Notes under the pieces: model-generated
Told to the model about the DNA's origin: nothing
Seen by the model: only the letters and a program-made list of their open reading frames with translations
Databases searched by the model: none
Shown: in pieces, positions 27,756 to 45,300 of the stretch
Layout: each line of letters opens with the position of its first letter
Position numbering within the stretch: the stretch's first letter is position 1
Assembly (NCBI GenBank): GCA_027023425.1
Contig: JALVVL010000041.1
Span: 8,336 to 72,335, forward strand
DNA length: 64,000 nucleotides
Origin: Anaerolineales bacterium
Lineage (GTDB): Bacteria > Chloroflexota > Anaerolineae > Anaerolineales > DRMV01
Direction: 5' to 3'
Position numbers and translations under genes: made by a program

Positions 27756-28914
27756 GGGCAAGCTACTAAGGGCTTGCGGTGGATGCCTAGGCGCCAAGAG
27801 CCGATGAAGGACGCGGCACACTGCGATAAGCCTCGGGGAGGCGTGTGCAGCCTTTGATCCGGGGATTTCCGAATGGGGAAACCCGCCATGGCAAACCCAT
27901 GGCACCCCTGGCTGAACCCATAGGCCAGGTGGAGGGAACCCGGGGAACTGAAACATCTTAGTACCCGGAGGAAGAGAGAACATTCCCTTAGTAGTGGCGA
28001 GCGAACGGGGAAAAGCCCAAACCTGCACAACTTAGTGGCCGGCAGGCCTATGTTGTGCAGGGGTTGTAGGCCCTGCCAGGAGGAGCTGCCGATCCTCCAG
28101 GGAGTTACAAACCAACCCGTTAGCCGAAGTGGTCTGGAAAGGCCTGTCCAGAGAGGGTGATAGCCCCGTAGGCGAAAACGGGTTGGCTCCCGGCAGTGAG
28201 CCTGAGTACCGTCGGGCACGCTAATCCGGCGGGAAGCAGGGAGGTCCACCTTCCAAGGCTAAATACTCTTGGCGACCGATAGTGCACAAGTACCGTGAGG
28301 GAAAGGTGAAAAGCACCCCGGTGAGGGGAGTGAAATAGAACCTGAAACCGCAAGCCTACAAGCAGTCGGAGGGCTATGCCGGGTTGAGCGCCTTTGAGCG
28401 TTCCCCGGAAAGCCTGACGGCGTGCCTTTTGGAGAATGAGCCTGCGAGTTAATCTCAGTGGCGAGGCTAAGGGAGTAACACCCGGAGCCGTAGCGAAAGC
28501 GAGTCTGAATAGGGCGTTTAGTCGCTGGGATTAGGCACGAAACCAGGTGAGCTAACCATGGGCAGGGTGAAGGCGGGGTAAAACCCGCTGGAGGCCCGAA
28601 CCGGTGTCCGTTGCAAAGGGCTCGGATGACCTGTGGTTAGAGGTGATATGCCAAACGAACCTGGAGATAGCTTGTTCTCCCCGAAATAGCTTTAGGGCTA
28701 GCGTCACGCGTTCAGTACCGGAGGTAGAGCACTGGATGGGCTAGGGGGCTCACCGCTTACCGAACCCAACCAAACTCCGAATGCCGGTACTCCACAGCGT
28801 GGCAGTCGGACCGCGGGAGATGAGTTTCGTGGTCGAGAGGGAAAGAGCCCAGACCATCGGCTAAGGTCCCTAAGTCCAGGCTAAGTGGGAAACGAGGTGG
28901 GACTGCCGAGACAA

Positions 28915-28972
<58 letters not shown>

Positions 28973-29697
28973 AAGTGGTCCTGCGCGGAAAATGTATCGG
29001 GGCTAAAGCCTGGCACCGAAGCCATGGGTCTCCGTCGCCTGCGGGCGGCGGGGGCGGTAGGGGAGCGTTCTGTGCGCGCCGAAGCCGTACCGTGAGGAGC
29101 GGTGGAGCGCACAGAAGTGAGAATGCAGGCACGAGTAGCGTACAAACGCGTGAGAACCGCGTTCGCCGAAAGTCCAAGGTTTCCGACGGCAGGTCAATCC
29201 GCGTCGGGTTAGGCGGGCCTTAGCCGAGGCCGAAAGGCGTAGGCGATGGACAGCCGGTCAACATTCCGGCCCCGCCCGGATGGAGCGATGGGGCGACGCG
29301 GCGAGGTAGGCCAGCCGGCGATTGGTAGTGCCGGTGCCAAGCGCGTAGGCGTTGAGGCCCGTAGGCAAATCCGCGGGCTGAGTCGAGGCGTGATGGCGAG
29401 CCCTTGAGGCGTAAGTGGCCCACCCTTGCCGCCGAGAAAACCCTCTAAGCGTTGAAGTCCGGGCGCCCGTACCGCAAACCGACACTGGTGGACGGGTAGA
29501 GTATACCAAGGCGAACGGGAGAACCCTCGTTAAGGAACTCGGCAAATTGGCCCCGTAACTTCGGGAGAAGGGGTGCCCCATTAGGGTGAAGGCCCTCGCG
29601 GCTGGAGCCCGAAGGGGCCGCAGCGAACAGGCTCTGGGGACTGTTTAACAAAAACACAGGTCTCTGCGAAACCGTAAGGTGACGTATAGGGGCTGAA

Positions 29698-29731
<34 letters not shown>

Positions 29732-29750
29732 TAGCCGCCTTCGGGCGGCG

Positions 29751-30561
<811 letters not shown>

Positions 30562-30650
30562 AAGTTCCGACCCGCACGAAAGGCTTAACCACCGGAGCAC
30601 TGTCTCAACGAGGGACCCGGCGAAACTGCACTGTGCGTGAAGATGCGCAC

Positions 30651-30690
<40 letters not shown>

Positions 30691-30837
30691 CAGCTTGGCA
30701 TTGAGCTTGGGCATAGCCTGTGTAGGATAGGTGGGAGGCTGAGAAGCCGGGGCGCCAGCCTCGGTGGAGCCGCCGGTGAAATACCACCCTGGCTATGTCT
30801 AGGCCCTAACCCCGCGCCGTTAGCCGGGCGGGGGACC

Positions 30838-30893
<56 letters not shown>

Positions 30894-31034
30894 CCAAAGG
30901 TTCCCTCAGGGTGAATGGAAACCACCCGTAGAGTGTAAAGGCACAAGGGAGCTTGACTGCAAGGCCAACGCGCCGAGCAGGGACGAAAGTCGGGCTTAGT
31001 GATCCCACGGTACCGTGTGGAAGGGCCGTGGCTT

Positions 31035-31067
<33 letters not shown>

Positions 31068-31103
31068 GGTGAGGCCCAAGAGTTCACATCGACGGCCTCG
31101 CTC

Positions 31104-31237
<134 letters not shown>

Positions 31238-31300
31238 TAGGGGACTTGAGAGGATCTGCTCCTAGTACGAGAGGACCGGAGTGGACGGACCTCTGGTGTG

Positions 31301-31333
<33 letters not shown>

Positions 31334-31343
31334 CACGTCCGGC

Positions 31344-31375
<32 letters not shown>

Positions 31376-31610
31376 ACCCGCCTCAAGATTAGGTCCCCCA
31401 CCGGGATAACCGGGTAAGGCCGCAGGAAGACTACCTGCTTGATAGGCGGCAAGTGTAAGCGCAGCAATGCGTTTAGCTTAGCCGTACTAATGGCCGAGGG
31501 CTTGCCCCGTGATGCGGAGAACCAGGCGTTCTTCGCGGCGGCGCTTTTCGCTACCGCACACTCTATTCACGCCGTCATCTGCACTTTTCCACCCTCTTGT
31601 GAACAAACCC

Positions 31611-32362: not shown

Positions 32363-32390
32363 TTTTGGAAAAATTTTTGCCAACTGCGCT
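32363..32390 (+). promoter_or_regulatory. Candidate operator before the small HTH gene
   Basis: TTGG and CCAA are 11 bases apart within TTTTGGAAAAATTTTTGCCA and the following ACTGCG. The half TTTTNCCAACTGNCG-like part is shared with the operator candidate at 32648-32672 before cas3. Confidence 0.35.
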
Positions 32391-32430
32391 TTAGCCTGAG
32401 AAATAGAACCCTACTTCTCAGGAGGCGCAG

Positions 32431-32634
32431 ATGGCACGTTTACCCGTTGGTGAAAAGCAGCGAAAGAAGAAAAAAGTGTGGCGTTTGCTTTGGGGGCATC
32501 CTTTTGGGTTGAAGGAAAGCGAAATTGCCGAAGAATTGGGCTGGCACCGCCGCACAGCGAACAACTATTTGCGAGAACTTGCAGAAGACGGCAAGGCTTC
32601 CAAAGTAGGACGCTTGTGGTTTGCCGAAAAATGA
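32431..32634 (+). CDS. Small winged-helix DNA-binding protein next to cas3
   Basis: This 67-aa protein consists of a basic N terminus and one helix-turn-helix with wing: KESEIAEELGWHRRTANNYL then RELAEDGKASKVGRLWF. It closely resembles residues 29-64 of the WYL-Cas3 fusion encoded 82 bases downstream (EREIAEMLNLPRRTVNNYLR, ELEREGRVYKDGRYWL), so the two probably arose by duplication and may bind the same kind of DNA site. It has no ligand-binding domain. CAGGAGGCG lies 6 bases before the ATG. A role as a regulator of the CRISPR locus is an inference from position and similarity. Confidence 0.75.
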   Translation: MARLPVGEKQRKKKKVWRLLWGHPFGLKESEIAEELGWHRRTANNYLRELAEDGKASKVGRLWFAEK

Positions 32635-32647
32635 AATGGCAGATTGG

Positions 32648-32679
32648 CCGTTGGTAATTTTCCAACTGGCGTGTACAAT
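32648..32679 (+). promoter_or_regulatory. Promoter of the cas operon with overlapping inverted repeat
   Basis: TTGGTA (32651-32656) and TACAAT (32674-32679) are 17 bases apart. GTTGG (32650-32654) and CCAAC (32662-32666) form an inverted repeat over the -35 box, flanked by GCC on the left and GGC on the right. This is where a repressor would be expected to bind. The cas3 start is 37 bases after the -10 box. Confidence 0.65.
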
Positions 32680-32716: not shown

Positions 32717-35700
32717 ATGGGACGGGTGGATGACCTTACAAAACGCCAACGCATAGAAGCCGTGTGGGCTTTGGTGCGGCGAAACCGCAACGGAATTTTG
32801 GAGCGCGAAATTGCCGAGATGCTCAATTTGCCGCGCCGCACGGTGAATAATTACCTTCGGGAGTTGGAGCGCGAGGGGAGGGTATACAAAGACGGTCGTT
32901 ATTGGCTTCCCTTCCCCTGGGAAGAAACCCGCTTGCGCCCCATCCAACTTACGCCTGAGGAAGCAATCTACCTTTACTTAGGCGCTCGCTTGTTGAGCAA
33001 GCAGATGGACCGCCGCAATGAGGCCGCCGAAAGCGCGCAACTCAAACTGGCGAGCGCTTTGCGCGATGACGCTGGTTTGGGGGATGCGATTGTCCGTGCC
33101 GCTCAGGAATTGGCAGCCAAACCGGAAGATGCCCATCATCGCTCTATCTTTCGTGAGGTGGTGCAGGGTTATATCTACCGCCGGAAGGTGCGCTTGCTTT
33201 ACAAGCCCCTGAATTGGAAGCATCCTTTTGAGACCACTTTTTCCACTTACATGATTGAGCCTTCGCTCATCGGCTCGGCCGTTTATCTCATCGGTCATAG
33301 CAGCCGCCCTAATGCCCTGCGGGCTTATAAACTGGAGCGCATTCAAAAGGCCGTTGTGACTTCTGAGCCGTACACCATCCCCGCTGATTTTGAAGGTGTG
33401 AGCGCTTTGCGAAAGAGTTGGGGCGTTGTGCTCGGTGAAGAGACGGTGAAAGTGGCCTTGCGGTTTAGCCCGCGGGTGCGTGAAAGGGTTCAGGAAACGA
33501 TATGGCACCCTTCGCAGCAGTTGTTTGAAGACCCTGACCGCGGGGGCTGGTTGCGCTGGGAGGCCGAGATCACCCACATTCTGGAAATTTTGCCCTGGGT
33601 GCGCTCGTGGGGCGCGGATGTGGAGGCGTTGGAGCCCCCTGAACTGGCCCGCACCCTGCGTCAGGAGGCCCGTCGGCTGATGCACCTTTACTTTCCGGAC
33701 CCCCGGCCTCGGCCACCGTACCTTTACCTGTGGGCCAAGGCCCGGCGAGACGATTTTCACCCTCTGCTCTATCACTTGCTGGATGTGGGCGCCTGCGCCG
33801 AGGCGCTTTGGGAGGTGGCGCTGACCCCCGCTGCTCGCGCGCAACTGGCCCATGACCTGGGCTTGAGCGAGGAAGAGGTCCGCCGCCTGGTTGTCTTCCT
33901 GGCGGCTGTGCATGACATCGGCAAGGCGGCTCCGGCCTTCCAGACCAAGGTGCCGGCCCTGCGGGAGGCGTTGCGCGCCCAGGGCTACGATTTCCCCGAA
34001 GCGGCAGAAAACGGCACCCCGCACAGCGTGATCAGCGCCTGGATGCTGCGCCGTTGGTTTCAGGAGATGTGGAGTTGGCCGCGCAGGGCGGCCCGTCACC
34101 TTGCCTACGCTGTGGGCGCGCATCACGGCCTGTGGCCTTTGAGCCGCCAGGTGAGCGCTCTCCGCGACTTGCGCAAAGACGATTTGGGAAACGCTCCCCT
34201 TTGGGAGCATGCCCGCCGCACGCTCCTGGAGAGCGTGGCGCAGGTCTTTTCGCCCCCCACGCAGGTGGAGATGCCCAAAGCCCCGGAGGTCGTCAACCGG
34301 GTGGTCACACTGCTGGCGGGCTTCGTTACCGTGGCCGACTGGTTGGGCTCGATGGAAACTTTCTTTCCTTACGAGGATCGCATCTTCACGGCTGAGGAAT
34401 ACCTGCCCCAGGCCCGGCGTCAGGCCAGGGAGGCCGTGGAAGACACCGGCTGGCTGCACGCCTGGCAGGCCACGGGCGAGATCTGGCCTTTTGAGCGCTT
34501 GTTTGACTTTGACGCCCCCCGCCCTTTCCAGGCGGAGGGCTTGCGCCTGGCCCGCGAGGTGGCACACCCCGCCCTGGTCATCGTGGAGGCCCCCACTGGC
34601 CAGGGGAAAACCGAACTGGCGCTGGCCCTGGCCGACGCCTGGCTTCAGGGGCGGGGCGGGCGCGGCCTGTATCTCGCCATGCCCACCCAGGCCACCAGCA
34701 ACGCCATGCACCGCCGCCTGCGCCGTTTTGTGGAGCGCCGTTACCCTGAGCAACAATCCCGGGTGGTGCTGGCCCACAGCCGCGCCCAAGATGTGCTTGA
34801 GTCGCCGAAGGGCGTTGGCGACGACCGCCCCGAGGAGACTGCCCGCGCGGCCGCCTGGTTCCTGCCCCGCAAGCGGGCGCTGTTGGCTTCCTTTGGCGTG
34901 GGCACGGTGGATCAGGCGCTGGTGGGGGCACTGCAGGCCCGGCATCACTATCTGCGCCTTTTTGGCCTGGCCCACAAGGTGGTGGTCTTTGACGAGGTGC
35001 ACGCCTACGACACTTACATGGAGATCCTTTTCCTGCGGCTGCTTGCCTGGCTGCGGGCGGTGGGTGCGTCGGTGATTGTGCTCTCGGCCACCCTGCCGCG
35101 CCGCGCCCGGGAGGCCATGTTGCGCGCCTGGACTTCCGCGCCGCTGCCCCCGCAGGAGCCTGCATACCCCCGCCTGACCATCGCCACCCCCCAGGGGGTG
35201 CAGAGCCATGCCTTGCCCGCGCCCGCCGACCGCACGGTGGCTTTGGGATGGCTGGATGCCCGTGCCCCTGACGCCCTGGCCGATTGGCTGGTCGACCGCC
35301 TGGCTCAGGGGGGCTGTGCCGCTGTGATCTGCAACACGGTGAACCGCGCCCAGGAAGTGTATGCCGCCGTGCGGGAGCGCTTCCCCGAGGACGAGCGCTT
35401 GCTCTTCCACGCCCGGATGCCCTTCGCCTGGCGGGTGGACATCGAGGAAGAAGTCCTCAACCGCTTTGGCAACGCCCAGAATGCTCAGCGTCCTCGGCGC
35501 TTTGTGCTGGTGGCTACCCAGGTCATTGAGCAAAGCCTGGATCTGGACTTTGACCTCATGGTTAGCGAACTGGCGCCGGTGGATTTGCTCATCCAGCGGG
35601 CCGGGCGGCTGCACCGTCACGTCCACCCTCGGCCCGTAGGGTTGGAGGAGCCTCAATTGTGGATTCTGCGCCCCCAGGGTGACCTGGCTGCCCCCACCTT

Positions 35701-36409
35701 TGGCCCCAGCCGTTATGTGTACGCGCCTTACATCCTGTGGCGCACGTACCTGGCCCTGGCTCCTCGGCAAGCGTTGCGGTTGCCCGCAGACACAGACGCG
35801 CTGATGCGGGCGGTGTACGCCCCGTGGGCCGAGGGTCAGGCCGACTCGATTCTGGACGGGCTGCCCGAGGAGGCGCGCTGTGCCGCTGCGGCCGGGCTGG
35901 CCGAGGCTTGGCAGAAATGGGAAGCCCAAACTGGAGACAGGGCTCGTAAGGCAGAGTTGCGCGTCTTGCCCAAAGTGAATGAAGTGCCTCTTACTACGGA
36001 GGACGTTGAGACGAGGCTGGAGGACGATGAGGAAGCCCTTAAGCATCCGGACCTCAAGGCCCTCACGCGGCTCATCGTGCCCGGTGTGACGCTGCTTCCC
36101 TTGCATCGCCAACCCGACGGACGGCTGACCTTAGAGCCGGATGGTGGCCTGGAGGTGTCGCTGGAAGCGCGCCCCACCCGACCTCATGCCCGAGAAATGC
36201 GGCGCTACCTGGTGCAGGTGCACCACCAGGGCTTGCTCCACAGCCCGGGCTTGCCCGCGCCGCCCTCGGCGTGGCAGCGGGTGGCTGGATTGCGCGGCGT
36301 GGTGCCCCTGGTGTTGGAGGATGGCGAGGCCCACATCGGCCCTTGGCGGCTGCGGCTGGATCGCGAATTTGGCTTGCGCTTGGAGGATACACGAAAGGAG
36401 GTTCCATGA
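32717..36409 (+). CDS. cas3: Fusion of an HTH-WYL-WCX regulator with Cas3 nuclease-helicase
   Basis: This 1,230-aa protein joins two complete modules. Residues 1-65 form a winged HTH (REIAEMLNLPRRTVNNYLRE). Residues about 100-235 form a WYL domain (YIYRRKVRLLYKP, then VYLIGHSSRPNALRAYKLER). Residues about 237-325 form the WCX extension (VKVALRFSPRVRERVQETIW). From about 335 it is type I-E Cas3: HD nuclease with H348, H353, H399-D400 (VHDIGK) and H469-H470; Walker A TGQGKT (627-632); DEVH box (759-762); SATLP; and QRAGR (960-964) in motif VI. Cas3 is recruited to Cascade-bound DNA, unwinds it and shreds it. WYL domains sense nucleotides or nucleic acids and usually regulate transcription. An internal ATG at 33680 (codon 322), with AGGAGG 11 bases upstream, could also yield a stand-alone 909-aa Cas3. 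The stop overlaps cas8e. Confidence 0.92.
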   Translation: MGRVDDLTKRQRIEAVWALVRRNRNGILEREIAEMLNLPRRTVNNYLRELEREGRVYKDGRYWLPFPWEETRLRPIQLTPEEAIYLYLGARLLSKQMDRRNEAAESAQLKLASALRDDAGLGDAIVRAAQELAAKPEDAHHRSIFREVVQGYIYRRKVRLLYKPLNWKHPFETTFSTYMIEPSLIGSAVYLIGHSSRPNALRAYKLERIQKAVVTSEPYTIPADFEGVSALRKSWGVVLGEETVKVALRFSPRVRERVQETIWHPSQQLFEDPDRGGWLRWEAEITHILEILPWVRSWGADVEALEPPELARTLRQEARRLMHLYFPDPRPRPPYLYLWAKARRDDFHPLLYHLLDVGACAEALWEVALTPAARAQLAHDLGLSEEEVRRLVVFLAAVHDIGKAAPAFQTKVPALREALRAQGYDFPEAAENGTPHSVISAWMLRRWFQEMWSWPRRAARHLAYAVGAHHGLWPLSRQVSALRDLRKDDLGNAPLWEHARRTLLESVAQVFSPPTQVEMPKAPEVVNRVVTLLAGFVTVADWLGSMETFFPYEDRIFTAEEYLPQARRQAREAVEDTGWLHAWQATGEIWPFERLFDFDAPRPFQAEGLRLAREVAHPALVIVEAPTGQGKTELALALADAWLQGRGGRGLYLAMPTQATSNAMHRRLRRFVERRYPEQQSRVVLAHSRAQDVLESPKGVGDDRPEETARAAAWFLPRKRALLASFGVGTVDQALVGALQARHHYLRLFGLAHKVVVFDEVHAYDTYMEILFLRLLAWLRAVGASVIVLSATLPRRAREAMLRAWTSAPLPPQEPAYPRLTIATPQGVQSHALPAPADRTVALGWLDARAPDALADWLVDRLAQGGCAAVICNTVNRAQEVYAAVRERFPEDERLLFHARMPFAWRVDIEEEVLNRFGNAQNAQRPRRFVLVATQVIEQSLDLDFDLMVSELAPVDLLIQRAGRLHRHVHPRPVGLEEPQLWILRPQGDLAAPTFGPSRYVYAPYILWRTYLALAPRQALRLPADTDALMRAVYAPWAEGQADSILDGLPEEARCAAAAGLAEAWQKWEAQTGDRARKAELRVLPKVNEVPLTTEDVETRLEDDEEALKHPDLKALTRLIVPGVTLLPLHRQPDGRLTLEPDGGLEVSLEARPTRPHAREMRRYLVQVHHQGLLHSPGLPAPPSAWQRVAGLRGVVPLVLEDGEAHIGPWRLRLDREFGLRLEDTRKEVP

Positions 36410-42355: not shown

Positions 42356-45300
42356 GTTGTCCCCACACGCGTGGGGGTGAACCGGCTGTGTACGAGGGCA
42401 ATTGCGGGCGTGACGACCGTTGTCCCCACACGCGTGGGGGTGAACCGGTAGGCAAAAAACGCTGTGCGCGCACCCAGAACGTTGTCCCCACACGCGTGGG
42501 GGTGAACCGGTCAGGCGGATGCGGTGAGCCTGGCGCAGTGGGTTGTCCCCACACGCGTGGGGGTGAACCGGTGACAGCCCGGTGCTGACCGCCGGGAAGA
42601 AGGTTGTCCCCACACGCGTGGGGGTGAACCGATGGGCGCGCCGACCGAGTACACGCTGGAGGGTTGTCCCCACACGCGTGGGGGTGAACCTATGACCTGC
42701 AAGAGCCCGCGCCGGAGAGCCGCGCGTTGTCCCCACACGCGTGGGGGTGAACCGATATAGAATTGACCAAAAGCACTTGCCCGCCGCGTTGTCCCCACAC
42801 GCGTGGGGGTGAACCGAACTCGCCGAGGCGGAGGCCGCGGGGAAACTCGTTGTCCCCACACGCGTGGGGGTGAACCGAGAGGTGAAAGATGGGCTACCCA
42901 GAACTGCCAGTTGTCCCCACACGCGTGGGGGTGAACCGTACTGACCGCCCTCATCTATGAGAATGAAGGCGTTGTCCCCACACGCGTGGGGGTGAACCGT
43001 CCATCTTTTCACACACCAAAAGGAGGTGTACCAGTTGTCCCCACACGCGTGGGGGTGAACCGCACTCGGCCTATTGGCACGAGTACAGCGACGGCGTTGT
43101 CCCCACACGCGTGGGGGTGAACCGTTCGTGGTGGCGATAATGAGGGGAGAATGGTTGGTTGTCCCCACACGCGTGGGGGTGAACCGACTTGGTGGTTTTG
43201 TGCCGTAATTGTCACGCGTTGTCCCCACACGCGTGGGGGTGAACCGCAATGGCGCGGCCCCGCACATCCTGGGGGTATGTTGTCCCCACACGCGTGGGGG
43301 TGAACCGATGAGCGCAAATACGTTCAGAGGCAAGGGCTTTAGTTGTCCCCACACGCGTGGGGGTGAACCGTATTGTCGCTGCTTTGAATGCCCTGCGCGA
43401 ACGTTGTCCCCACACGCGTGGGGGTGAACCGGCAATCGTGCGCCGAAGCGGGCGCGGCAAGTAGTTGTCCCCACACGCGTGGGGGTGAACCGACTGGCTT
43501 CAGGCGCGCTCACGTGGCGCGCATGCGTTGTCCCCACACGCGTGGGGGTGAACCTGAACAGGCACAGGCTCAGGAGGCCGAAGCCCGCGTTGTCCCCACA
43601 CGCGTGGGGGTGAACCGTGAATGTCGTTTCTCTACCGATGACCCTCGCTGTTGTCCCCACACGCGTGGGGGTGAACCGCCATGGCTTCGATATGTGCAAA
43701 GCACTTGATGAGTTGTCCCCACACGCGTGGGGGTGAACCGGCATCCCTGAAGGCGAGCACGGCAAAACTCATGTTGTCCCCACACGCGTGGGGGTGAACC
43801 GTATCACCCACGCGGCGGAATGCCGTTTTCAGCCGTTGTCCCCACACGCGTGGGGGTGAACCGTAGGAACCACTCATCGCTTCCACTTCCCCGCCGTTGT
43901 CCCCACACGCGTGGGGGTGAACCGAATACGCCGTTCTTTGTATCCTTGCCCCATTAGTTGTCCCCACACGCGTGGGGGTGAACCGACGGCAGAGGGTATC
44001 AGCAGCCTTTCAAAGGCCGTTGTCCCCACACGCGTGGGGGTGAACCGCCATCGCGAAATACCTCCACTCCGAGCCGGTCGTTGTCCCCACACGCGTGGGG
44101 GTGAACCGACAGGCAAATCATCGCCGGACGCGTGGATAGAGTTGTCCCCACACGCGTGGGGGTGAACCGCATCGCCGCGATGCTCTCCACGCACGAATGA
44201 CCGTTGTCCCCACACGCGTGGGGGTGAACCGCGCGGGGCGGTGGAAATGATGGCGCTCGCGGCGTTGTCCCCACACGCGTGGGGGTGAACCGTTGAGCGC
44301 GAGCGTGACGCTGAAGGTGACGGGGTTGTCCCCACACGCGTGGGGGTGAACCGCATCGCGAAGCCCCACGCGCTGGGCGTGCCGGCGTTGTCCCCACACG
44401 CGTGGGGGTGAACCGCGTTTGAGCGCCCTGCGCGGCGCATACGGTGAGTTGTCCCCACACGCGTGGGGGTGAACCGGTGCTTTCGCGGGACGACATTCGT
44501 GCGCTGGAGTTGTCCCCACACGCGTGGGGGTGAACCGGCAGTTGAGCAGGTGCGGGGGATGTCCCTCACGTTGTCCCCACACGCGTGGGGGTGAACCGTT
44601 CATCCCACTCCAGCCCGATGGGGTGCTGCTCGTTGTCCCCACACGCGTGGGGGTGAACCGTCTCGCCGCGCACAACGCGCACGTTATCCCACCGTTGTCC
44701 CCACACGCGTGGGGGTGAACCGGCAGTTGAGCAGGTGCGGGGGATGTCCCTCACGTTGTCCCCACACGCGTGGGGGTGAACCGGCTTCTGGCGCACCCAC
44801 CTCGCGGCAGAGGGCGTTGTCCCCACACGCGTGGGGGTGAACCGGGCTGTGGCGATGACGGTGACGCGGTTAAAGGCGTTGTCCCCACACGCGTGGGGGT
44901 GAACCTTTCTTCTCCGCGGGCTTGGTATCTGCGCCCACGTTGTCCCCACACGCGTGGGGGTGAACCGCAGCCGCCGCGGCCGCAGCTGCCGCCGCGGGCG
45001 TTGTCCCCACACGCGTGGGGGTGAACCGCTTCGTCAAAATCGCCAACAGAAGACGAAGAAGTTGTCCCCACACGCGTGGGGGTGAACCGGTGTGCCTTGG
45101 CCTGTTCTACTTGATAAAGCCGTTGTCCCCACACGCGTGGGGGTGAACCGGTGCCATCGCCATTGTCAACCGCCGAAGCGGCGTTGTCCCCACACGCGTG
45201 GGGGTGAACCGTGAGCGCGCGTGGGACGGTGCAGAGGCCAGAGCGTTGTCCCCACACGCGTGGGGGTGAACCGATGAGTTGGCTCAAATGATAAAAATGT

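What the first reader, a model, noticed from the sequence alone, without database searches (positions are those of the whole stretch)
32717..36409. Complete HTH-WYL-WCX transcription regulator fused in frame to Cas3
Seen: one 1,230-codon frame encodes, in order, a winged HTH, a WYL domain, a WCX-like extension and a full HD-helicase Cas3 with all catalytic motifs (H399-D400, TGQGKT, DEVH, QRAGR). Known: Cas3 of type I-E is normally about 890 aa and starts near the HD domain; WYL proteins act as separate regulators in some CRISPR loci. Inference: the effector nuclease also carries a ligand-sensing repressor or activator. It could bind the cas promoter and release it when a nucleic-acid or nucleotide signal appears, linking Cas3 supply to demand. 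I cannot say whether this fusion has been described.
Basis: partly seen in the sequence, partly recalled or inferred. Interest (0 to 1): 0.88.

Follow-up and report, generated by a model that had tools for sequence, protein, structure and literature searches.

The report
Cas3 nuclease carrying swappable ssDNA-sensor regulator
A CRISPR DNA-shredding enzyme in a Chloroflexota bacterium is fused to a sensor-type gene regulator, and this regulator travels, together with a tiny apparently undescribed DNA-binding partner gene and two matching DNA switch sites, as one cassette that has repeatedly been swapped between two kinds of CRISPR system.

Summary
Window 32717-36409 encodes one 1,230-aa protein: winged HTH, three-helix region, WYL, WCX, then a complete type I-E Cas3. 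It is the genome's only WYL protein and only convincing Cas3. The fusion itself is not new: Makarova 2014 reports WYL-Cas3 in some type I systems, and a PADLOC Cas3c profile already contains it.

Three things appear new. (1) A 65-72 aa HTH-only gene (here 32431-32634) precedes 56 of 66 fused loci with enough upstream DNA; 12 of 12 hits in 400 genomes sit beside a WYL gene. (2) Both promoters carry the same operator at a fixed distance from a -10 hexamer, with no clear -35 in three of four promoter groups; operator class follows mini-HTH class. (3) Operator, mini-HTH and HTH-WYL-WCX (about 1.35 kb) form an exchange unit joined to I-E or I-C Cas3 (15 switches by parsimony), with similarity ending right after WCX.

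Best model: an autoregulated, ssDNA-responsive control cassette, homologous to DriD/PafBC, with the sensor covalently attached to the nuclease. Ligand and direction (activation favoured over de-repression) are inferred, not shown.

The parts
32717..36409 (+). HTH-WYL-WCX-Cas3e fusion, 1,230 aa
32732..32902 (+). N-terminal winged HTH (residues 6-62), recognition helix RRTVNNYLREL
32954..33115 (+). helices 80-133, position of the DriD three-helix bundle (confidence low in part)
   Evidence: DriD anatomy in PMC12340889
33131..33370 (+). WYL domain (residues 139-218) with Y190, R202, K205, R208
33440..33691 (+). WCX domain (residues 242-325), PWVRSWGADVEAL
33716..34366 (+). Cas3 HD nuclease domain (residues 334-550)
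34514..35746 (+). Cas3 SF2 helicase (residues 600-1010)
36068..36376 (+). Cas3 C-terminal domain (residues 1118-1220)
32431..32634 (+). mini-HTH gene, 67 aa, HTH only; SD AGGAGG; 46% identical to the fusion's HTH
32365..32383 (.). O1: palindromic operator TTGGAAAAATTTTTGCCAA, 8 nt before -10-like TAGCCT
32392..32397 (+). -10-like hexamer TAGCCT of the mini-HTH promoter
32395..32422 (.). second inverted repeat CCTGAGAAATAG...CTACTTCTCAGG covering part of the -10 and the SD of mini-HTH; DNA operator or RNA hairpin, undecided
32651..32666 (.). O2: operator TTGGTAATTTTCCAAC upstream of the fusion
32674..32679 (+). -10-like hexamer TACAAT of the fusion promoter, 8 nt after O2 CCAA
36406..37971 (+). 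cas8e (cse1)
   Evidence: TIGR02547
37978..38481 (+). cas11e (cse2)
   Evidence: TIGR02548
38529..39686 (+). cas7e
   Evidence: TIGR01869
39689..40351 (+). cas5e
   Evidence: TIGR01868
40345..41019 (+). cas6e
   Evidence: TIGR01907
41073..42032 (+). cas1e
   Evidence: TIGR03638
42010..42300 (+). cas2e (start not determined)
   Evidence: TIGR01873
42345..46340 (.). CRISPR array, about 66 repeats GTTGTCCCCACACGCGTGGGGGTGAACCG, period about 61-63 nt; ends approximate

Best explanation
The protein is a complete type I-E Cas3 whose N-terminus is a DriD-type transcription regulator (wHTH, three-helix bundle, WYL, WCX). With the 67-aa mini-HTH gene just upstream it forms one autoregulated control cassette. 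[quoted passage not shown] operator, mini-HTH and HTH-WYL-WCX are inherited and exchanged as a unit, joined either to a I-E or to a I-C Cas3. Inferred: the mini-HTH (in the window's class perhaps also the fusion's own, very similar recognition helix) binds both operators; the WYL-WCX part binds short single-stranded DNA, as DriD, PafBC and CapW do; that binding switches the locus to higher expression, most likely by recruiting RNA polymerase to promoters without a -35. Because the sensor is part of Cas3, which makes ssDNA at its target, active interference would feed back on Cas3 supply.
For: Full-length homology and fold match to DriD bound to ssDNA and DNA; Y190, R202, K205 and R208 match PafB Y196, R208, R211, R214 by exact spacing, residues whose mutants lose ssDNA binding in PafB (PMC11804915), and R202/K205/R208 align with RxxRxxR of DriD. 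mini-HTH in 56 of 66 fused loci and 12 of 12 hits in 400 genomes directly upstream of a WYL gene; low dN with dS about 0.8-2.5 or saturated. Operator A in 16 of 16 and operator B in 36 of 45 matching loci, 0 in the other class, about 0 in shuffles; hexamer 8 nt after CCAA in nearly all class A sites and 28 nt from half-site start in 30 of 39 class B upstream sites. No -35 above chance in three of four promoter groups, as for DriD, whose site overlaps -35 at fixed distance from -10 (PMC12340889). In the own 2.2-Mb genome the half-operator occurs only at O1, O2 and inside one coding sequence. Exchange unit borders and 15 I-E/I-C switches.
Against: No binding, expression or ligand data exist. In class B the fused HTH varies while the operator stays constant, so the fused HTH may not bind it. 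An operator over the -35 region also fits a repressor; class A O2 has a weak -35 (TTGGTA here) and class B O2 an extended -10. Operator consensus was derived from the same loci, and the A/B class split may be a single event. Ten fused loci lack a recognised mini-HTH and one (L060) has a frameshifted one.
Confidence: 0.5

Rival explanations
1. Repressor model (like CapW, BrxR, CapK+CapS): mini-HTH and/or the WYL-Cas3 dimer sit on O1 and O2, block RNA polymerase, and release when ssDNA or another nucleic-acid ligand binds the WYL domain.
For: WYL regulators next to immune operons are known repressors, some released by ssDNA, and CapS binds two palindromes, one at its own promoter and one at the operon promoter (PMC13373217), the same layout as O1/O2. 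The second inverted repeat covers -10 and SD of mini-HTH.
Against: Three of four promoter groups have no -35 above chance, so there may be little basal promoter to repress; the operator keeps an exact phase to the -10, which recruitment needs and mere occlusion does not.
Confidence: 0.33
2. The fused module acts on the enzyme: WYL-WCX gates or tethers Cas3 nuclease-helicase activity by binding ssDNA, and the HTH is only an inherited remnant.
For: Fusion puts the sensor next to the HD domain with a short linker; a WYL accessory protein positively modulates Cas13d (reference title seen in PMC11127173).
Against: The module is exchanged together with mini-HTH and both operators, and also exists as a separate gene before cas3 in many Chloroflexota; an HTH-sized N-terminus is kept in the complete fusions.
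Confidence: 0.12
3. Neutral read-through: a WYL gene overlapping cas3 lost its stop codon and the two parts work as before, with the fusion of no consequence.
For: Separate WYL genes overlap or abut cas3 in L178-L180 and fused/unfused switch 11 times on the tree.
Against: Fusion has been kept or regained in dozens of lineages and in two Cas3 families at the same border.
Confidence: 0.05

Closest known systems
WYL-Cas3 fusion of 'some type I systems' (Makarova et al. 2014, PMC4012209) and PADLOC Cas3c profile PDLC01766
   Same: WYL domain in one chain with HD-helicase Cas3; the PADLOC profile spans HTH-WYL and Cas3c.
   Different: Published as one sentence without subtype, partner gene, operator or mechanism in the text read; the PADLOC model that contains the module is Cas3c, while the best I-E model starts near the HD domain.
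DriD of Caulobacter (8tp8, 9pfq) and PafBC of mycobacteria (6sj9, 9fnd)
   Same: wHTH-three-helix-WYL-WCX order, ssDNA-binding basic positions, operator over -35 at fixed distance from -10 (DriD).
   Different: Those are separate activators of DNA-damage genes; here the module is fused to the effector nuclease and paired with a mini-HTH.
CapW/BrxR, CapH+CapP, CapK+CapS controllers of adjacent immune operons (PMC13373217)
   Same: Dedicated regulator at the head of an immune operon; ssDNA sensing reported for CapW, CapP and CapK; two palindromes in the CapKS locus.
   Different: None is described as fused to the effector; CapKS uses a kinase and STAS domain; direction here may be activation.
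Type I Cas3 structures 4q2c and 4qqw (T. fusca)
   Same: HD, helicase, CTD; 37% and 29% identity in the structure match.
   Different: No regulator module.

Membership tests
Type I-E Cas3 (Cas3e) | HD nuclease residues followed by SF2 helicase with Walker A, DExH, motif VI, and a CTD | tested here: met
   Invariant in 21 sequences; TIGR01587/01596 over cut-off; PADLOC Cas3e E 1e-203; but below the cut-off of NF007248 (434 of 569 bits)
Type I-E Cas3 (Cas3e) | Located in an operon with cas8e, cas11e, cas7e, cas5e, cas6e, cas1e, cas2e | tested here: met
   All seven over NCBIfam cut-offs
WYL-WCX transcription regulators (DriD/PafBC type) | wHTH, helical bundle, WYL and WCX in this order | tested here: met
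WYL-WCX transcription regulators (DriD/PafBC type) | Basic ligand groove residues needed for ssDNA | tested here: met
   Y190, R202, K205, R208 by spacing to PafB and alignment to DriD; K replaces one R
WYL-WCX transcription regulators (DriD/PafBC type) | Binds ssDNA and target promoter DNA | not testable with these tools
   needs binding assays
CapW/BrxR-type repressor of an immune operon | Palindromic operator at the operon promoter | tested here: met
   O1 and O2
CapW/BrxR-type repressor of an immune operon | Represses in the absence of ligand | not testable with these tools
   promoter anatomy leans to activation
Published WYL-Cas3 fusion | WYL domain in one polypeptide with HD and SF2 helicase of Cas3 | tested here: met
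   PMC4012209

The most novel reading that the evidence does not exclude
A portable control cassette (operator, mini-HTH, second operator, HTH-WYL-WCX) is traded between type I-E and I-C CRISPR loci by recombination at the WCX-HD border, making Cas3 itself an ssDNA-responsive transcription regulator of its own operon, so that DNA degradation products feed back on nuclease supply and two CRISPR systems in one cell can share one control circuit.
Probability: 0.4. Interest if true: 0.82.

Novelty: new variant of a known kind. Interest (0 to 1): 0.62.

Why it matters
How type I CRISPR operons are switched on is poorly known outside a few model species. Here the effector nuclease, a homologue of ssDNA-sensing regulators and a dedicated operator pair are physically and evolutionarily one unit, so the idea that interference products control Cas3 supply can be tested directly. 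The cassette's repeated transfer between I-E and I-C also suggests that regulation is a module of CRISPR evolution in its own right, and the mini-HTH is an apparently undescribed CRISPR-associated protein family that gene callers can easily miss.

Tried and rejected
Artefact or frameshift: rejected, many other fusions. Fusion unknown to science: rejected. Wide regulon in the own genome: not supported, the third half-operator lies inside an amidase-like coding sequence. An exact-spacing operator pattern gave only chance matches in the window because O1 and O2 differ in spacing. The inverted repeat on the mini-HTH SD as an RNA hairpin: undecided; mismatches are as often A-C (15) as G-U (14), which gives no support for RNA. 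WYL in long frames of f44 genomes (L078-L080, L084): long frames without Cas3, not fusions of interest. Paper searches for a small HTH gene upstream of WYL/cas3 found nothing. The second structure job was not used.

Full report
OBSERVATION. The open frame 32717-36409 (+) encodes 1,230 aa. Pfam, NCBIfam and PADLOC find HTH, WYL, WCX, HD, helicase and Cas3_C in that order. A profile of six I-E fusions matches DriD over residues 5-316 (E 1.5e-15) and Cas3 over 334-553. Foldseek gives Cas3 4q2c (E 6e-57) and DriD bound to ssDNA and cognate DNA 8tp8 (E 6e-13), then PafBC. All nuclease and helicase residues are invariant. The seven other genes are a complete I-E set, followed by an array of about 66 repeats. 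In the 2.2-Mb genome this is the only WYL protein and the only convincing Cas3.

KNOWN OR NEW. Makarova et al. [quoted passage not shown] The PADLOC Cas3c profile PDLC01766 aligns to residues 9-1151 of a I-C fusion, so it already contains the WYL part. The passages of the 2025 CRISPR classification that were found by search do not mention it. The fusion as such is therefore known; the rest below was not found in the papers searched.

DISTRIBUTION. Relatives were taken from the genome search and from genome contigs (217 relatives, best 80 kept). After removing copies, 99 WYL loci remain; 74 are WYL-Cas3 fusions, 39 with a I-E and 35 with a I-C Cas3 (I-C typed by Cas5c, Cas7c, Cas8c). Nearly all are Chloroflexota, mostly Anaerolineae; one I-C case is the strain Bellilinea caldifistulae GOMI-1 (L172). 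This sample is biased to relatives of the window. In an even draw of 400 Chloroflexota genomes, 38 have a I-E-like Cas3 and only 4 are in frames over 1,200 aa; by comparison, about eight of the rest have a WYL gene on the same strand next to cas3, and in the three that were fetched the two genes abut or overlap.

MINI-HTH. A 67-aa HTH-only gene with a strong Shine-Dalgarno lies at 32431-32634. It is 46% identical over 57 aa to the fusion's HTH and has no other relative in the genome. A gene of 65-72 aa of this family is found upstream in 56 of 66 fusions that have enough upstream DNA (I-E 27/33, I-C 29/33) and in nine separate WYL loci. Searching 400 genomes with a class B member gave 12 matches at E 1e-8 or better; all 12 lie directly upstream of a WYL gene (against the WYL places). 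dN is 0.02-0.32, while dS is about 0.8-2.5 or saturated. Pfam gives only generic winged-HTH matches.

OPERATORS. Upstream of the mini-HTH lies a palindrome: TTGGAAAAATwwTTTCCAA where the mini-HTH helix reads RRTxNNYL (class A, includes the window), TGTTGCAnnACnTGCAACA where it reads RSEVTR, RSTVQR or similar (class B). With at most two mismatches, A occurs in 16 of 16 class A loci and in 0 of 45 others; B in 36 of 45 class B loci and in 0 of 16 others; shuffles give means of 0.26 and 0. The consensus comes from these loci, and the A/B split may reflect one ancestral change, so the association is strong but not many times independent. A half-site or degenerate copy recurs between mini-HTH and WYL frame. 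The distance to a -10-like hexamer is the same at both promoters: 8 nt after CCAA in class A (13 of 17 upstream sites pass a strict hexamer test, 17 of 18 intergenic sites) and 28 nt from the start of TGTTGC in class B (30 of 39 and 24 of 50). Matches to a -35 are no better than in shuffles in three of four groups; class A O2 has 3.3 of 6 against 2.5. The consensus scanner independently picks TTGGTA-17-TACAAT at 32651-32679. In the whole genome AATTTT-N0-2-CCAACTG occurs three times: O1, O2 and inside an amidase-like gene.

EXCHANGE UNIT. On the WYL tree I-E and I-C fusions are mixed: 15 switches by parsimony among fused rows, with at least 11-12 changes per label forced by well-supported branches when unfused rows are counted too. 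In eight close I-E/I-C pairs, DNA identity is mostly 60-90% from the region of O1 (less in L113/L070) to the end of WCX and then falls at once to the 45-50% of unrelated sequence; in pairs of one subtype it continues. In one MAG (Brevefilum, G413; L067 I-C, L068 I-E) the most upstream stretch compared is 99-100% and the later WYL part 91-98% identical. Those two contigs both end at the cassette, as an assembler does at repeats, so long reads should confirm it.

MECHANISM. Y190, R202, K205 and R208 fall on PafB Y196, R208, R211 and R214 by spacing; PafB mutants at these positions lose ssDNA binding (PMC11804915). DriD aligns with arginines at the three basic positions. DriD sites overlap the -35 and keep a fixed distance from the -10 of non-optimal promoters (PMC12340889), the same anatomy as O1 and O2. 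I therefore favour ssDNA-triggered activation, with CapW/CapKS-like de-repression as the main rival (PMC13373217). Who binds the operator is open: its class follows the mini-HTH, while in class B the fused HTH drifts, which points to the mini-HTH as main binder and the WYL protein as sensor and partner. That partnership is inference.

LIMITS. No experiment; single-chain structure model with unreliable placement of domains relative to each other; MAG data; promoter rules of Chloroflexota are assumed sigma-70-like.

Noticed in passing
30054-30530, inside 23S rRNA 27756-31509: The 23S rRNA match is about 830 nt longer than the model and holds a LAGLIDADG endonuclease frame (PF00961, E 4e-24): probably an intron or intervening sequence with a homing endonuclease.
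   Followed up: partly
44509-44598 and 44694-44783: Two array units with an identical spacer: a duplicated spacer in the CRISPR array.
   Followed up: no
L060 (12307-12630), I-E locus of G037: The mini-HTH there is frameshifted after about 30 codons while the WYL-Cas3 fusion is intact.
   Followed up: no
L067:1-3466 and L068:6357-10316: One MAG carries I-C and I-E Cas3 fusions with near-identical regulator cassettes: possible shared control or recent gene conversion.
   Followed up: partly
32395-32422 and counterparts in related loci: An inverted repeat over the mini-HTH -10/SD keeps its symmetry while its sequence changes between loci; it may be the site of the faster-changing fused HTH, or an RNA hairpin.
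   Followed up: partly
L133: A contig labelled Rhizobiaceae MAG holds a class A mini-HTH and a separate WYL gene: transfer out of Chloroflexota or misbinning.
   Followed up: no
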